Source of the DNA: Gloeobacter violaceus PCC 7421
Lineage (GTDB): Bacteria > Cyanobacteriota > Cyanobacteriia > Gloeobacterales > Gloeobacteraceae
Length of the DNA: 64,000 bases
NCBI RefSeq assembly: GCF_000011385.1
Contig: NC_005125.1
Span: 372,001-436,000 of the forward strand
Direction: 5' to 3'
Made by a program: the position numbers and the translations under genes. This document shows, one piece after another, positions 30,701 through 39,436 of the stretch. How positions within the stretch are numbered: position 1 is the first letter of the stretch; every line of letters starts with the position of its first letter. The notes under the pieces are model-generated. The model saw only the letters and a program-made list of their open reading frames with translations. It searched no databases and was not told the DNA's origin.

Positions 30701-30934
30701 GCGATTGCCTCCAGCGCCGGGGCAGAGGTGCAGCGCCCCCTGGCTACGGTGGTCATCGGCGGGCTGGTCACCTGCACGCTCTTTACACTCTTTGCCCTGC
30801 CGGTGCTCTACCCGCTTATCTGTGGTCCGTCGGGTTCCAGCGGCGGCAATTCCCTCTGGGCGCGTTTGCGCAAGCTGCTGCCTGGAGGCTCGTCGAAGCG
30901 AACCAATCAGCCGGAAGCACCCCAGTCCGGGTGA
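27707..30934 (+). CDS. Heavy-metal efflux RND permease (CusA/CzcA family)
   Basis: A 1075-residue inner-membrane pump with the standard 12 helices and two large periplasmic loops. HME-type marks are FPIDGLPDISNVQVQV near the N-terminus, and in the fourth helix GAIDFGLLVDGAVFMVEN, with the acidic residues used for proton transfer. The C-terminal half repeats the fold (VGGLVALYLRGFPLSVSAG, then GVAVLNGIVLVS). AGGGGGAA precedes the ATG. Neither a membrane-fusion protein nor an outer-membrane channel gene is adjacent, which these pumps need. The metal cannot be decided. Confidence 0.92.
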   Translation: MTSVLKPEEEQAQKKPGLLKKWIYGALKARLLAALLLVTVVGLGINSLTRFPIDGLPDISNVQVQVITEAPALGPQEVEQLITFPVEIALTGMPRLTQMRSISKYGLSQITVVFEDGTDVYFARQLVNERLKGIEALLPGGSESPVLGPVSTGLGEIFIFELQGESRSPMELRTLMDWTVIPRLKSVPGVAEINPMGGFVKQYQVRLDPLRLLGYGITPQQVFDALATNNANSGGGYLSSQRGEQTIIRGEGLVITTDDISRVIVDRSGGTPIYVRDIATVEIGNQLRQGVVTRDSTDGAVIATVLMRAGQNANGVVKDVKTRVAEIQKELPEGVQIVPHYDRTQLITAAIKTVALNLTEGALLVTAILLIMLGNVRASIITALIIPLSMLLAITGMVIGGVSGNLMSLGAIDFGLLVDGAVFMVENIILRLSEQRPETPKERMAVIGAASAEVAKPVAFAITIVTVVYIPIFGLSGVEGKLFQPMAFTVILALVASLVLTLTLVPLACYFAFAKKPPEERETLVLGWVRPPYEWVLGRLMGRWLPVSLASFAIFAASLTLVPLLGSEFVPNLAEGSLVINVRRPPAASLDEGARQTKIIERVVGEFPEVRTIFSTTGHPELATDTNKSENSDVFVMLKPQKDWKTAKTQEELVAKIEKRLEGVIPGITIAYTQPIQQRVNELLSGDRLDVALRIYGPELDVLNNAATQAAKAIKAVPGAADVRAETITGLPVLNIKVDRERLAQYGINVREVLDTIEATRAGKVVGTVYEGRQRYALAVKFDEGAIADVDAVRRLPVSTKDGGIVPLETVVDVTVGDGLAQVSHREGERVITVGMNVRGRDLGSFVAAAQAAVEQTAQLPKGYRLVWGGQFENYQSALSRLQILVPLALALIFVLLYSSFGNLRPGILIFLNVPFSLVGGLVALYLRGFPLSVSAGVGFITLFGVAVLNGIVLVSTIRDIEEAEGIGPREAALKGAKERLRPILSAALLASIGFIPMAIASSAGAEVQRPLATVVIGGLVTCTLFTLFALPVLYPLICGPSGSSGGNSLWARLRKLLPGGSSKRTNQPEAPQSG

Positions 30935-30977
30935 TATCGCATAGGTATCGGTAGTCTGAACTGGCAGGGTGTGCATT

Positions 30978-31046
30978 AGGAAATGGTGGTTCTCTATGTA
31001 TGTTGTTGGCGACATATATAGAAAATGGCGGTTCTCTATGTATATT
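30978..31046. repeat. Two direct repeats of 27 bases
   Basis: AGGAAATGGTGGTTCTCTAT continuing to 31004 recurs as AGAAAATGGCGGTTCTCTAT continuing to 31046, start-to-start distance 42 bases, with four differences over 27 bases. They sit between the RND pump stop and the MITE-like hairpin. Function unknown. Confidence 0.65.
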
Positions 31047-31127
31047 AGACCTCTTGCATGAACCGGATTGCGGAACGAGTTTCCAATGGTTTGAGCTGTT
31101 TATCTTGGCATTCGCGCAAGAGGTCTA
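31046..31127. mobile_element. MITE-like element, 82 bp with 12-bp perfect terminal inverted repeats
   Basis: TAGACCTCTTGC (31046-31057) and GCAAGAGGTCTA (31116-31127) are exact inverted repeats; allowing one mismatch they extend to 16 bases (ATATTAGACCTCTTGC). Between them are 58 bases without a gene. The outermost TA on each side could be a target duplication, as in Tc1/IS630-type elements, leaving ends GACCTCTTGC. It looks like a non-autonomous element or the ends of a deleted IS. Confidence 0.5.
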
Positions 31128-31201
31128 TTATCTGGAACGCGTCAGCTATATGGTGGAGGCTGAACGTTCGTCCAGTTCTGCACTCGGGCTGTTTGACGAG
31201 G

Positions 31202-34854: not shown

Positions 34855-34873
34855 GCCAGTACACGACCTTGCG

Positions 34874-35200
34874 ATGGTCAGACCCGCCGTGCCTGTCAGT
34901 GTCATCTCCAAAAACGGTGTCCCTATTCGGCTGACGGAGGAGCGATGGGAGCATATCATTGAGCAACACGCGGAACTCAAGGATAGCAAGTCTCAAATCT
35001 TGCAAGCGATTGGCGATCCTCAGCGGGTCGTAGCAGGCACGGGTGGGGAGCTGTTAGCGGTCAAACCGATTCAGTCCGAAAAACAACTCGTTGTCGTGTA
35101 CCGGGAGTTGAAAGACGATGGATTTATCATCACCGCTTACACAACCAGCAGAACCCAGCCACTAGATCGAAGAAAGCAGTTATGGCCACCACTAATATAG
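34874..35200 (+). CDS. PBECR-like (Barnase/EndoU/RelE-fold) nuclease, putative toxin
   Basis: A 108-residue protein. The pattern IRLTEERWEHIIEQHAEL at the N-terminus with a conserved Trp-x-x-Ile-x-x-x-His, and GFIITAYTTSRTQP near the end, match the small RNase-fold family labelled PBECR2 or DUF4258-like, which occurs as toxin in toxin-antitoxin loci and at the ends of polymorphic toxins. His in EQHAEL and the Thr/Ser/Arg near the C-terminus are candidate catalytic residues. Its 3' end overlaps the next gene by 19 bases. That gene begins with a DUF2283 domain, a usual antitoxin-like partner of such proteins. Activity is inferred. Confidence 0.6.
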   Translation: MVRPAVPVSVISKNGVPIRLTEERWEHIIEQHAELKDSKSQILQAIGDPQRVVAGTGGELLAVKPIQSEKQLVVVYRELKDDGFIITAYTTSRTQPLDRRKQLWPPLI

Positions 35201-36318
35201 ACGATTACTTGAACGTGCTTCCGCTGGAAAAGTTGGCGGGAAAGCAGGATTTCTGGTCATTCTACGACTCTGAAGCCGACACGTTGTATTTCAATTTCAA
35301 AAAGCCAAGTGTCGCTACCGATAGCGAGCTCACTGACGATGACGTGATCATTCGATACGAAGGCGATCAAGTCGTTGGCTTTACGGTTCTCCATGCAAGC
35401 AAACGTGGCGGAAGTCTCCCGGTTCAAATTGTTTTTGCACAGCAGCTCAAACTCCTGGAAACATATTTACTGATTCTCCGCAAAATGAAATTTTTGCCCA
35501 CGCTAATCTGGTGGCGTGTGAATGGTATAAACTGGATGTTTTGGCTGGGGTATCCTGTCTTCCGGCCCTTGTTGTTTTTGCTAATTACTAGCCACATTAG
35601 ACGTATTCTTGTTCCCCTCGAAAGAGTTTACAAATTAAATGCCTCTGCAAGCCCTTCAGAAGCCGTGAAAATTCAGTGGGTGGCGCTTCATGAAAGAGTA
35701 AAACTGATGCGCGAGGAAATTGGCGTCGTTATTGTCTCACCGTTGATGTTGACAATCCTTGGCCCGTTTGGCAGCGCTGGCCTGGCTGTAATAATTTCTT
35801 GGGAAACAATTAAATCATTAATGCAGGAGGGCATTCGCGAAAACGTACAAGACATTACAATTAATCTATTGTCGACCTATATATTTTATGTTGTTAATTT
35901 GATTTCAATCGCTCTGGGACTGCTCAGCATTGTCTTGGTAATTACTTTCTATGTCAAACGGAGATTGTTTAACGAACCTTACGTACAACTAGATGAACTC
36001 TTTCTAACACCAGTCTTAAAAAAGATTGTAGACCCAGCCACCGGTAAAAGTTTGTATCTTGAGGAGCAGAAGCTGTTTAAGGCGGTAGAAGAACCCTACC
36101 CCAACGAAAATCCTGTAGACCAGTTACTCTTAGGCTTTACCTACTTGTACCTGTGCTTGATAACCGCAAGTGGTTTCGGAATTTTAGCGTGGTTTATATA
36201 TTCCAGAAACCATATCGTAGCGTACATTTATGGGTTCCTTTGTCTTATACCTATCTTGGCTGGCTTCCTACTGATTAGAGGGATCTGGCGAGAGATCAGA
36301 GAAAGACGGGCTACATAA
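35182..36318 (+). CDS. DUF2283 domain fused to a multi-pass membrane protein
   Basis: A 378-residue protein. Residues 20-80 form a DUF2283 domain (SFYDSEADTLYFNFKKPS, then DDVIIRYEGDQVVGFTVLHA), normally a free-standing protein of about 70 residues beside small nuclease genes. The rest is unlike any family I know: one or two helices at about 110-145 (INWMFWLGYPVFRPLLFLLI), more at about 185-210 and 230-260 (ILLSTYIFYVVN-like, ALGLLSIVLVITFYV), and a terminal pair at about 315-365 (LLLGFTYLYLCLITASGFG, YIYGFLCLIPILAGFLLI). The gene is clearly AT-richer than its neighbours. It overlaps the nuclease-like gene by 19 bases, so both are made together. Confidence 0.7.
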   Translation: MATTNIDDYLNVLPLEKLAGKQDFWSFYDSEADTLYFNFKKPSVATDSELTDDDVIIRYEGDQVVGFTVLHASKRGGSLPVQIVFAQQLKLLETYLLILRKMKFLPTLIWWRVNGINWMFWLGYPVFRPLLFLLITSHIRRILVPLERVYKLNASASPSEAVKIQWVALHERVKLMREEIGVVIVSPLMLTILGPFGSAGLAVIISWETIKSLMQEGIRENVQDITINLLSTYIFYVVNLISIALGLLSIVLVITFYVKRRLFNEPYVQLDELFLTPVLKKIVDPATGKSLYLEEQKLFKAVEEPYPNENPVDQLLLGFTYLYLCLITASGFGILAWFIYSRNHIVAYIYGFLCLIPILAGFLLIRGIWREIRERRAT

Positions 36319-36370
36319 ACAGGTTTGGCTAGTGGAATCCATAGGAGCCCAGAGCGAGGGCTATCGAGTT

Positions 36371-37903
36371 TTAAGCGCTATCAGGAAAGCAGTACCCAGG
36401 AGCGCACAGATTGCGGATTTTGAGCGTCGAGACCCGACGCGAGACAAGGTCGATAACGCGGATGGCGTGGTTGTTGGTGTCGGCAATATAGATCCGATCG
36501 CCGTTGCGCCACAATCCGGCAGGCTCCCAGAAGCGCGCCTCGGCAAGGTCGCCGTCGAGATAGCCGCTGTCGATGTGGCCTGTGAGAGTCTCGCACCGCC
36601 CACTTTCGGGGTCGATGCGCTTGATTTTGTGGTTGTAGGTGTCGGTCAACCACAAAGTTCCACCGTCCCAGTGCACCCCAAGCGGGTGCTGCAACAGCAC
36701 GGCTTCCCCTAAGCCGTCTTGATCCCCAAAGCCGAACAGGTCGCCTGAGCCGCACAGGAGTGCGGTGATATCTTCAGCAATGCCCACGGTACGCACGGAA
36801 CTGCTTTCGGAGTCGGCGACGAACAACCTGTGATCATTGGTAGTGATCCCACTCGGTTGGGCGAAAGCGGAACCGTCGCGCGTACCGTTCAGGGTCGATT
36901 CGTGGCCGTTGCCGGCAAAGGTGCTGATTCTGCCGCTATGCGGGTCGCACTTCCAGATCTGGTGGGAACCGGCCATCGCCACGTAGAGCGCTCCATCCGC
37001 CACCACTGCGTCCCAGGGCGAATTGAGGGGAATCTCCAGACCTGGCCCTTCGACCTGGCCATAGCCCAGACTCTGCTCGCCGGTGCCTGCGAAGGTGCTT
37101 ACCTGGCGGCGGACCAGGTCGATTTTGCGCAGCAGATGATTCTCGGTGTCGCAGACGAACAGCGTGCGGCCGTCCGCAGAAAGAGCCAGCCCCTGGGGAG
37201 CCCAAAATTCGGCCTCCTCGAAGTTGCCGTCGCGCCAGCCGGGGATGCCGGAGCCGATGCTCTCGTGGCTGGAGCCGTCCAGGCTGCTGGTCACGATGCG
37301 GTGGTGACCGCTGTCGCTGACAAACAGGCGATCGCCGTAAACGGTGAGTTTGCCGGGAAAGGCGAGGGGCGTGGGCGGGGCGGAAGCTTTTTCAAGGCGT
37401 GTGCGCAACCCACCGGGCAGCGGGCGGCCCTGGTTTGTCTGGCGCAAAACCAGTTCGCCGATCAGTTGATCGAGCAGGTCGCGGTTGCCCTCGCCGGAGG
37501 CGTGGCCCACGTAGTAACCGTCCGGGTCGATGAGCACCAGCGTCGGCCAGGCCCTGACCGTGTAGCTCTGCCAGATGGTGTGGCTCTCATCGACGATCAC
37601 CGGATGCTCGATGTCGTGGCGCAAGATCGCCCGGCGGATATTGTCCAGGTCCTGCTCGTTGGCAAATTTGGCGGTGTGCACGCCGATCACCGTGAGGCTG
37701 TCGCGATACTTGTCCTCGAGGTATTTGAGATCCGGCAAGATGTGCAGACAGTTGATACAGCAGTAGGTCCAAAAATCGAGCAGCACGACCCGGCCGCGCA
37801 GTTCCTTCAGGCGTAGGGGCCTGTCGGTGTTGAGCCAGTGAAATTTTGGGGGCAGCTCGGGGGCGCGGACACGGGGGGTCTTGCTGGACACGGCGGTTCC
37901 CAT
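36371..37903 (-). CDS. Thioredoxin-like domain plus NHL-repeat beta-propeller protein (NHLRC2-like)
   Basis: About 510 residues. Residues 15-155 are a thioredoxin/TlpA fold with LLDFWTYCCINCLHILPDL, an unusual active site with adjacent cysteines (CCINC), and RAWPTLVLIDPDG with the cis-Pro. The remainder is a six-bladed NHL propeller with repeats such as GRTLFVCDTENHLLRKIDL, DHRLFVADSESSSVRTV and GTLWLTDTYNHKIKRID. This matches the NHLRC2 architecture found in many bacteria and animals, role uncertain, probably redox related. The ATG at 37903 is preferred; the frame reaches 38017 but that part overlaps the promoter of the divergent mutase. The gene converges with the DUF2283 gene. Confidence 0.85.
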   Translation of the reverse strand: MGTAVSSKTPRVRAPELPPKFHWLNTDRPLRLKELRGRVVLLDFWTYCCINCLHILPDLKYLEDKYRDSLTVIGVHTAKFANEQDLDNIRRAILRHDIEHPVIVDESHTIWQSYTVRAWPTLVLIDPDGYYVGHASGEGNRDLLDQLIGELVLRQTNQGRPLPGGLRTRLEKASAPPTPLAFPGKLTVYGDRLFVSDSGHHRIVTSSLDGSSHESIGSGIPGWRDGNFEEAEFWAPQGLALSADGRTLFVCDTENHLLRKIDLVRRQVSTFAGTGEQSLGYGQVEGPGLEIPLNSPWDAVVADGALYVAMAGSHQIWKCDPHSGRISTFAGNGHESTLNGTRDGSAFAQPSGITTNDHRLFVADSESSSVRTVGIAEDITALLCGSGDLFGFGDQDGLGEAVLLQHPLGVHWDGGTLWLTDTYNHKIKRIDPESGRCETLTGHIDSGYLDGDLAEARFWEPAGLWRNGDRIYIADTNNHAIRVIDLVSRRVSTLKIRNLCAPGYCFPDSA

Positions 37904-38020
37904 GGGCACACTTTCAGCATGGCTTACCGGTGGGGCGATTGTCCCGGGCTGCACGGGCGGACTGCGAATGGCGGGTGGCCTATACTCGACAGTGCAAACG
38001 GGCATACAGGAGAGCAACCG

Positions 38021-39436
38021 ATGGCAGGCACGGCCATTCGCTTCGGTACCGACGGCTGGCGGTCGATTATCGCGCGGGAATTCACCTTCGAGAATGTCAC
38101 CCGCGTGGCGCGGGCTTCCGCTGAAATCCTTGCCGAAACTTTTGAAGGCGAGGGAATCGTCATCGGCTACGACCGCCGCTTTCTAGCCGACGAATTTGCC
38201 CGCACCGCCGCCGAAGCCGTGCGCAGCCTGGGTCTATCGGTGCTCTTGGCCGACCGCCCCGCCCCCACCCCCGCCTTCAGCTGGGCGGTCAAAAAACGCG
38301 GCGCCAAGGGTGCTCTGGTGCTCACCGCGAGCCACAACCCCGCTTCCTACTGCGGCATCAAGATCAAAGGCGCCTTCGCAGGGTCGGTCTCGCCGGAATT
38401 CACCCGGGCGGTCGAAGAGCGGCTCGAAGGTCCAGTACCTGCGGATCGGCCCCGGGGCAGCCTGGCGCTGTTCGATCCATGGATGGACTATCTGGCCCAG
38501 TTGCGCACGCGGGTGGACGTGGCTGCCCTGCAGGAAGCGAACCTGGCTATCTTTATCGATGTCATGCACGGCGTCGGCGCGGGGGGATTGCCCCACCTGC
38601 TCGGACCGAACGTGGTAGAAGTGCGCGAGCGCCACGATCCGCTTTTTGGCGGCACCCCGCCCGAACCGATCGGCCGCTACCTGATGCCTTTATTTCAGGC
38701 GGTGCGCGACTACCGGGGGAATCGGCCGGTGGTCGGTCTGGCCTTGGATGGCGACGCCGATCGGATCGCCGCCGCCGATCGCCACGGCCATTTTTTGAGC
38801 TGCCAGGTGCTCATTCCCCTGCTGGTGGACCACCTGGCCCGCCGCCGGGGACTCGCCGGCAAAGTCGTCAAGACGATCAGCGGCTCGGATCTGATTGCAA
38901 AGGTGGCCCGCGCCCGGGGATTGCCGGTCGAGGAGACGGCCATCGGCTTTAAGTACATCGCCGACGTCATGCTGCGCGAGCCGGTGCTCGTGGGTGGCGA
39001 AGAATCGGGAGGCATCGGCTATCTGGGCCACATGCCCGAGCGCGACGGGCTTCTGTGTGCGCTGTATCTAGTCGAGATCGTGGCGCAAACCGGCAAAGAT
39101 CTGGGCGCTCTGTTTGCCCAATTGCAGGAGGAACTCGGTTTTCGCTCCCACTACGACCGGCAGGATCTGCGCCTGGCGGACGAAGCGTTCAAGCAGCGAT
39201 TGCTGGGAGAGCTGGAAAACTCCCCCCCCAAAACGGTGGCCGGGCAGGCAGTGATCGAACACAGCGCTATCGACGGCCACAAATTTCGCCTCGCCGACGG
39301 GCACTGGTTGCTCGTCCGCTTCAGCGGCACCGAACCGCTGCTCCGGCTCTACTGCGAAGGCCCCGACCCCGCCCGGGTCACCGAGACATTGCAGTGGGCG
39401 GAGCGTTGGGCCACCGGCCCTGGGGTGCTATGCTGA
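38021..39436 (+). CDS. Phosphoglucomutase/phosphomannomutase family protein
   Basis: A 471-residue alpha-D-phosphohexomutase. All four active-site loops are visible: phosphoserine loop in LVLTASHNPASYCGIKIKG, metal loop ALDGDADRIAA, sugar-binding loop VGGEESGGIGYLG, and phosphate-binding loop VRFSGTEPLLRLYCEG. The N-terminus IRFGTDGWRSIIAREFT is typical of the cyanobacterial/archaeal-like subgroup. The length is that of PGM/PMM-type enzymes. AGGAGAG precedes the ATG at 38021, and TATACT at 37981-37986 may be the -10 element. Glucose versus mannose preference is not readable. Confidence 0.9.
   Translation: MAGTAIRFGTDGWRSIIAREFTFENVTRVARASAEILAETFEGEGIVIGYDRRFLADEFARTAAEAVRSLGLSVLLADRPAPTPAFSWAVKKRGAKGALVLTASHNPASYCGIKIKGAFAGSVSPEFTRAVEERLEGPVPADRPRGSLALFDPWMDYLAQLRTRVDVAALQEANLAIFIDVMHGVGAGGLPHLLGPNVVEVRERHDPLFGGTPPEPIGRYLMPLFQAVRDYRGNRPVVGLALDGDADRIAAADRHGHFLSCQVLIPLLVDHLARRRGLAGKVVKTISGSDLIAKVARARGLPVEETAIGFKYIADVMLREPVLVGGEESGGIGYLGHMPERDGLLCALYLVEIVAQTGKDLGALFAQLQEELGFRSHYDRQDLRLADEAFKQRLLGELENSPPKTVAGQAVIEHSAIDGHKFRLADGHWLLVRFSGTEPLLRLYCEGPDPARVTETLQWAERWATGPGVLC

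What the first reader, a model, noticed from the sequence alone, without database searches (positions are those of the whole stretch)
34874..36318. Nuclease-like gene overlapping a DUF2283-membrane fusion: possible membrane-anchored toxin-antitoxin system
The first gene has the pattern of small PBECR/DUF4258-like RNase-fold toxins. The second starts with DUF2283, usually a short free protein beside such genes, but here it continues into about 300 residues with several membrane helices. The 19-base overlap forces joint expression, and the second gene is AT-rich and foreign-looking. A membrane-bound antitoxin could release the nuclease on membrane damage, for example by phage.
Basis: partly seen in the sequence, partly recalled or inferred. 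Interest (0 to 1): 0.65.

Follow-up and report, generated by a model that had tools for sequence, protein, structure and literature searches.

The report
Membrane-tailed partner of RNase-like toxin
A common bacterial two-gene pair that looks like an RNA-cutting toxin and its protective partner has, in two Gloeobacter-group cyanobacteria only, a partner fused to a large membrane anchor that has changed far faster than the rest of the pair, which suggests a toxin held and controlled at the membrane.

Summary
Both genes are real and correctly placed. ORF1 (34874-35200; start probably GTG 34889) is predicted to fold like RelE/BrnT/CDI RNases and keeps the BECR histidine/threonine pair. ORF2 (35182-36318) is DUF2283 plus a ~300-residue tail with four conserved membrane helices. 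ORF1 plus a short DUF2283 gene is an ordinary module: all 80 closest ORF1 relatives, from many phyla, have DUF2283 directly downstream, nearly always overlapping ORF1. So the overlap and pairing are the family rule, not a peculiarity here. The membrane fusion is the rarity: about 300 other listed DUF2283 frames all lie in open frames of 192 codons or fewer. Only this genome (size matches Gloeobacter violaceus PCC 7421) and the MAG 'Aphanocapsa lilacina' carry it, at the same site; a third close relative lacks the module there. Between the two, ORF1 and DUF2283 differ as little as their neighbours (dS 0.14-0.24). The tail is saturated (dS ~1.8) but under purifying selection (dN/dS 0.18), with the break exactly at the domain junction. 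Best reading: a toxin-antitoxin-like BECR RNase whose antitoxin-like partner is membrane-anchored through an exchangeable tail. RNase activity, neutralisation and any phage role are untested; there is no defence island.

The parts
34889..35200 (+). ORF1: BECR (RelE/BrnT-like) RNase-fold predicted toxin; ORF from ATG 34874, but the start shared with the relative is GTG 34889 (103 aa)
   Evidence: open frame, PBECR2 family hits, confident model (pLDDT 90.8), fold matches to CDI toxin, TA toxins and BrnT; His27/His32 and Thr87/Thr91 conserved
35182..35200 (+). 19-base overlap of ORF1 and ORF2 (ATG of ORF2 inside the 3' end of ORF1)
   Evidence: overlaps of 10, 13, 16 or 19 bases in 70 of 80 relatives from many phyla
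35182..35409 (+). DUF2283 part of ORF2 (residues 1-76; Pfam match 27-73), predicted cytosolic antitoxin-like partner
   Evidence: PF10049, 45.3 bits; stand-alone homologues end at about residue 75; dS 0.24, dN/dS 0.20 between the two fused alleles
35410..36318 (+). Membrane tail of ORF2, about 302 residues, four conserved TM helices in two hairpins, no known family
   Evidence: no family above cut-off, dN/dS 0.18, dS ~1.8; N-in/C-in topology inferred from hydropathy and charge
34855..36370 (.). Whole island between the cobalamin adenosyltransferase gene (ends 34854) and the NHL/thioredoxin-like gene (ends 36371, - strand); absent at this site in a close Gloeobacter relative
   Evidence: DNA match to L142 (G388) stops at window 34850 and resumes at 36375; ORF1 and ORF2 not found between

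Best explanation
The pair is a toxin-antitoxin-like operon. ORF1 is a metal-independent RNase of the BECR (RelE/BrnT/colicin D-like) fold. DUF2283, translated through the overlapping start, binds and silences it; in most bacteria this is a small soluble protein. In Gloeobacter the DUF2283 protein has gained a four-helix membrane tail, so the predicted inhibitor, and the RNase bound to it, would sit on the cytosolic face of the membrane. The tail would then be the part that responds to something at the membrane or controls turnover, which fits its being replaced or diversified independently of the toxin-inhibitor interface. Shown: the genes, the conserved pairing, the predicted fold, the fusion in two genomes, purifying selection on the tail, and the sharp divergence boundary. 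Inferred: RNase activity, neutralisation by DUF2283, membrane location, topology and a sensing role.
For: 80 of 80 closest ORF1 relatives have DUF2283 immediately downstream; the overlap is 10, 13, 16 or 19 bases in 70 of them. The ORF1 model (pLDDT 90.8) matches a CDI toxin complex chain (Z 7.5), a Salmonella TA complex chain (Z 7.2) and BrnT (Z 6.9), then HigB, RelE, YoeB and ParE; BrnT is also Foldseek's first hit. The BECR active-site pattern described for PBECR (helix His, C-terminal Ser/Thr; PMC5512222) is conserved: His27 and Thr87 in 42 of 42, His32 and Thr91 in 41 of 42. Another DUF2283 gene in this genome also follows a DUF4258-like ORF (similarity judged by eye). The fusion is kept in a second genome at the same site, with the tail at dN/dS 0.18. 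No ATG shared by both alleles could start the tail as a separate protein.
Against: No experiment or paper found shows DUF2283 to be an antitoxin. ORF1's own Pfam score is below the curated cut-off. Fold Z-scores of about 7 are in the range that the tool warns may be non-specific, and Foldseek E-values are not significant. The fusion is known from only two related genomes. The tail model is poor (ORF2 mean pLDDT 63). GTG/TTG codons shared by both alleles leave a separately started membrane protein formally possible.
Confidence: 0.55

Rival explanations
1. Chance read-through fusion: an ordinary soluble DUF2283 antitoxin lost its stop codon next to an unrelated membrane-protein gene; the fused tail has no role in controlling the toxin and keeps its own, separate membrane function.
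For: Fusion found in two related genomes only. The tail's divergence is uncoupled from the rest of the module. The junction lies exactly where stand-alone DUF2283 proteins end.
Against: The frame is kept across both alleles despite saturated synonymous divergence, with in-frame gaps only. No ATG shared by both alleles could restart the tail. The tail was not found as a stand-alone gene in the 59 relatives, 386 cyanobacterial genomes, plasmids or viral contigs searched.
Confidence: 0.25
2. The membrane tail is itself an effector (for example a pore-former or a membrane toxin), so that the protein couples RNase inhibition to a second, membrane-killing function.
For: Multi-helix membrane effectors are common in conflict systems (general knowledge); the tail diverges much faster than its partner.
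Against: No similarity to any effector family above cut-off in Pfam, NCBIfam, PADLOC or PHROGs. Purifying rather than diversifying selection (dN/dS 0.18).
Confidence: 0.1
3. The pair is not a toxin-antitoxin module but a housekeeping RNA-processing enzyme with an accessory subunit, membrane-attached in Gloeobacter.
For: Housekeeping neighbours, no mobile or clear defence genes. Strong conservation across phyla.
Against: Patchy presence, including an empty site in a close relative; foreign base composition; toxin-like fold matches; DUF2283 copy numbers from 0 to 16 per genome.
Confidence: 0.1

Closest known systems
PBECR2 (PF18810) / DUF4258 (PF14076) BECR-fold RNases; BrnT, RelE, HigB toxins
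   Different: ORF1 scores below the PBECR2 cut-off. PBECR2 was described in phage polyvalent proteins (PMC5512222), whereas this family had no match in phages or viral contigs and is paired with DUF2283
Stand-alone ORF1-family + DUF2283 two-gene modules in other bacteria (L050-L128)
   Same: Same gene order, overlapping start, and 44-60% protein identity for ORF1
   Different: DUF2283 is a free protein of about 75-85 residues without a membrane tail
ToxM/ToxR: BECR-fold toxin fused to a transmembrane domain (Gerdes 2025, PMC11980606)
   Same: Membrane-associated BECR-fold toxin-antitoxin-like pair; membrane sensing was suggested there too
   Different: There the toxin carries the membrane domain and the upstream antitoxin is an RHH/HTH DNA-binding protein; here the downstream, antitoxin-like partner carries it and has no recognised DNA-binding domain

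Membership tests
[quoted passage not shown]
   Model pLDDT 90.8 with H22-31, H39-47 then strands 51-54, 60-66, 70-78, 83-91; best structural matches are CDI, BrnT, HigB and RelE toxins
[quoted passage not shown]
   His27 (42/42) and His32 (41/42, in or at the end of helix 22-31), Thr87 (42/42) and Thr91 (41/42) in strand 83-91
PBECR2 (PF18810) | Score above the curated Pfam cut-off | tested here: not met
   17.8 against 27.1 bits for ORF1; 26 of 42 family members hit PBECR2 at E <= 0.05, best 3.4e-6: related, but not filed as PBECR2
BECR-fold RNase (RelE/ParE superfamily, PBECR clade) | RNA cleavage activity | not testable with these tools
   Needs an assay
DUF2283 (PF10049) | Pfam match above cut-off | tested here: met
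   45.3 bits against 23, residues 27-73
Type II toxin-antitoxin module | Two adjacent co-directional small genes, conserved as a pair and patchily distributed | tested here: met
   80/80 pairing, empty site in a close relative; here the second gene is large because of the fusion
Type II toxin-antitoxin module | Toxin inhibits growth and the partner neutralises it by binding | not testable with these tools
   No experimental data and no paper on DUF2283 found
Known anti-phage defence system | Match to a known defence protein model, or defence-island context | tested here: not met
   No PADLOC match for ORF1, ORF2 or the ORF1 family. Two weak PADLOC hits among neighbours: one is a HATPase_c protein and the other an amine-oxidase-like flavoprotein by Pfam

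The most novel reading that the evidence does not exclude
A membrane-anchored antitoxin: the inhibitor of a cytosolic RNase toxin carries an exchangeable membrane sensor tail, so that an event at the membrane (phage entry, depolarisation, envelope stress) frees or activates the toxin. It would be the mirror image of ToxM, with tail alleles swapped between strains while the toxin-inhibitor core is kept.
Probability: 0.3. Interest if true: 0.7.

Novelty: new variant of a known kind. Interest (0 to 1): 0.48.

Why it matters
The ORF1-family + DUF2283 pair is widespread across phyla, yet the library searched holds no paper mentioning DUF2283, so a simple toxicity and rescue test could assign a function to a common family. 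The Gloeobacter version would show how a soluble toxin-antitoxin pair can be moved to the membrane by changing the antitoxin rather than the toxin.

Tried and rejected
Full-length ORF2 scan of genome contigs: no relative. Tail in plasmids, viral contigs and 386 cyanobacterial genomes: nothing apart from the genome itself and two weak hits of about 80 residues at E ~1e-3 inside unrelated larger frames. ORF1 family in viral contigs and ORF1 in phage records: none; in plasmids only four distant matches at 30-33% identity. PDB sequence searches for ORF1, tail and DUF2283: nothing meaningful. Structure of the tail: confidence too low for a fold search, so none was run. Sequencing error or pseudogene: rejected because the fused frame is kept with dN/dS 0.18 in a second genome. 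Separate downstream gene: unlikely, no ATG shared by both alleles.

Full report
Setting. The window is part of a 4,659,019-base single-contig genome. That size equals my memory of Gloeobacter violaceus PCC 7421, which I use as a label only. The two genes lie between a cobalamin adenosyltransferase gene (ends 34854) and an NHL-repeat/thioredoxin-like gene on the other strand (ends 36371). Other neighbours are housekeeping genes: precorrin-8X methylmutase, a KefB-like exchanger, phosphoglucomutase, an AcrB-type pump and others. PADLOC gives only two weak hits among the neighbours, which Pfam names a HATPase_c protein and an amine-oxidase-like flavoprotein.

The observation. Both ORFs exist as described. 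ORF1's ATG at 34874 is AAG in the relative while GTG at 34889 is shared, so the protein is probably 103 aa. ORF2 has DUF2283 at residues 27-73 and no other Pfam domain above cut-off. The island is AT-rich for this genome.

ORF1. Alone it hits PBECR2 at 17.8 bits, below the cut-off. Its relatives do better: 26 of 42 hit PBECR2 at E <= 0.05, best 3.4e-6, and 5 hit DUF4258. The AlphaFold model is confident (90.8). Its best structural matches are a CDI system chain, a Salmonella toxin-antitoxin chain and the RNase toxin BrnT (Z 7.5-6.9), followed by HigB, RelE, YoeB and ParE toxins. Foldseek ranks BrnT first, though with a weak E-value. The conserved residues (His27, His32, Thr87, Thr91, Arg24, Glu78, Trp25, Trp104) fit the BECR pattern of a helix histidine and a late-strand Ser/Thr (PMC5512222). 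Activity is inferred, not shown.

The pair is a common module. The ORF1 alignment recovered 474 or more relatives in named genomes, and the best 80 were fetched: Nitrospira, Chloroflexi, Planctomycetes, delta-proteobacterial MAGs, Acidobacteria, cyanobacteria and others. In 80 of 80 a DUF2283 gene lies immediately downstream on the same strand; the overlap is 10, 13, 16 or 19 bases in 70 of them. The 19-base overlap is therefore the family rule, with the ORF2 ATG next to the conserved C-terminal 'LWP' of ORF1. These 80 are the closest relatives and were picked by conserved motifs. More distant BECR relatives (L036, L037, L039-L042, L046-L048) showed no DUF2283 hit nearby, and many DUF2283 genes lack an ORF1-type neighbour. 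In this genome a second DUF2283 gene follows an ORF that looks DUF4258-like by eye.

The fusion is rare. Among about 150 listed DUF2283 matches in 386 cyanobacterial genomes, every open frame is 134 codons or shorter except this one (443, stop to stop). In 48 genomes of many phyla the longest listed is 192. Both lists show the best matches only. A second fusion exists in G386, the MAG 'Aphanocapsa lilacina' HA4352-LM1 (L049/L023), at the same site, with the nuclease. A third close relative (G388) matches the window at 93-95% on both sides but has about 460 unrelated bases in place of the module.

Two speeds of evolution. Between this genome and A. lilacina, ORF1 (dS 0.14), DUF2283 (dS 0.24), cobA (0.21), cbiC (0.15) and KefB (0.20) show ordinary divergence. 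The tail has dS ~1.8 (saturated) but dN/dS 0.18, 53% protein identity and in-frame gaps only. DNA identity drops from 95% (35250-35400) to 63% in the next 150 bases and stays at 56-68% to about 36450. It is about 78-94% to about 39000, then back to 92-99%. The break falls at codon 76, where stand-alone DUF2283 proteins end. For the NHL and phosphoglucomutase genes, A. lilacina is the odd one out of three genomes. The simplest reading is that A. lilacina imported a tract of about 3.5 kb from a more distant Gloeobacter-like donor, with its left edge at the DUF2283/tail junction. The tail is more diverged even than the rest of that tract. Hence the tail is a functional, independently replaced part, while the toxin-partner core is kept. 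The import direction is inferred from three genomes.

Tail anatomy. Hydropathy shows four helices shared by both alleles (about 188-206, 240-258, 321-339, 345-363 here) plus a stretch at 126-144 that passes the threshold in this genome only. Positive charges lie in the loops that would be inside, so both ends, including DUF2283, should be cytosolic. The structural model of the tail is poor and no family was found. No ATG upstream of the helices is shared by both alleles; only GTG/TTG codons are.

Mechanism. Most likely ORF1 is an RNase toxin held inactive by DUF2283, and in Gloeobacter the complex is anchored to the membrane by the tail. Whether the tail senses something is conjecture. Gerdes (PMC11980606) described ToxM, a BECR toxin with its own membrane domain, and suggested sensing of incoming DNA; the present case is the reverse arrangement. 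A search for phrases such as 'membrane-anchored antitoxin' and 'membrane-bound antitoxin' found no paper, and none mentions DUF2283. The library is open-access only, so this does not prove novelty.

Noticed in passing
window 35410-39000 against L143: About 3.5 kb of lowered identity (56-90%) between otherwise ~95% identical Gloeobacter genomes, spanning the tail, the NHL gene and part of the phosphoglucomutase gene; looks like an imported tract in A. lilacina.
   Followed up: partly
window 30825-31131: AT-richer stretch between the AcrB-like and KefB-like genes that does not align with A. lilacina, where it is replaced by different DNA; possibly another small variable site.
   Followed up: no
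L002 (own genome, contig position about 599300): Second DUF2283 gene of this genome, directly behind a small ORF that looks DUF4258-like.
   Followed up: partly
L015 (reverse strand, 470-1340 in reversed coordinates): A PBECR-like ORF followed by two different DUF2283-like ORFs in a row.
   Followed up: no
L036, L037, L039, L046, L047: A sister BECR family ('TPLGFxVRTxEEYWQ...') in cyanobacteria without a DUF2283 hit nearby; its partner gene was not identified.
   Followed up: no
L142 2298-2763: In the relative lacking the module, the site holds about 460 bases without either ORF, with several TGACACC/CCTGTCA-like motifs, perhaps a small non-coding repeat element.
   Followed up: no
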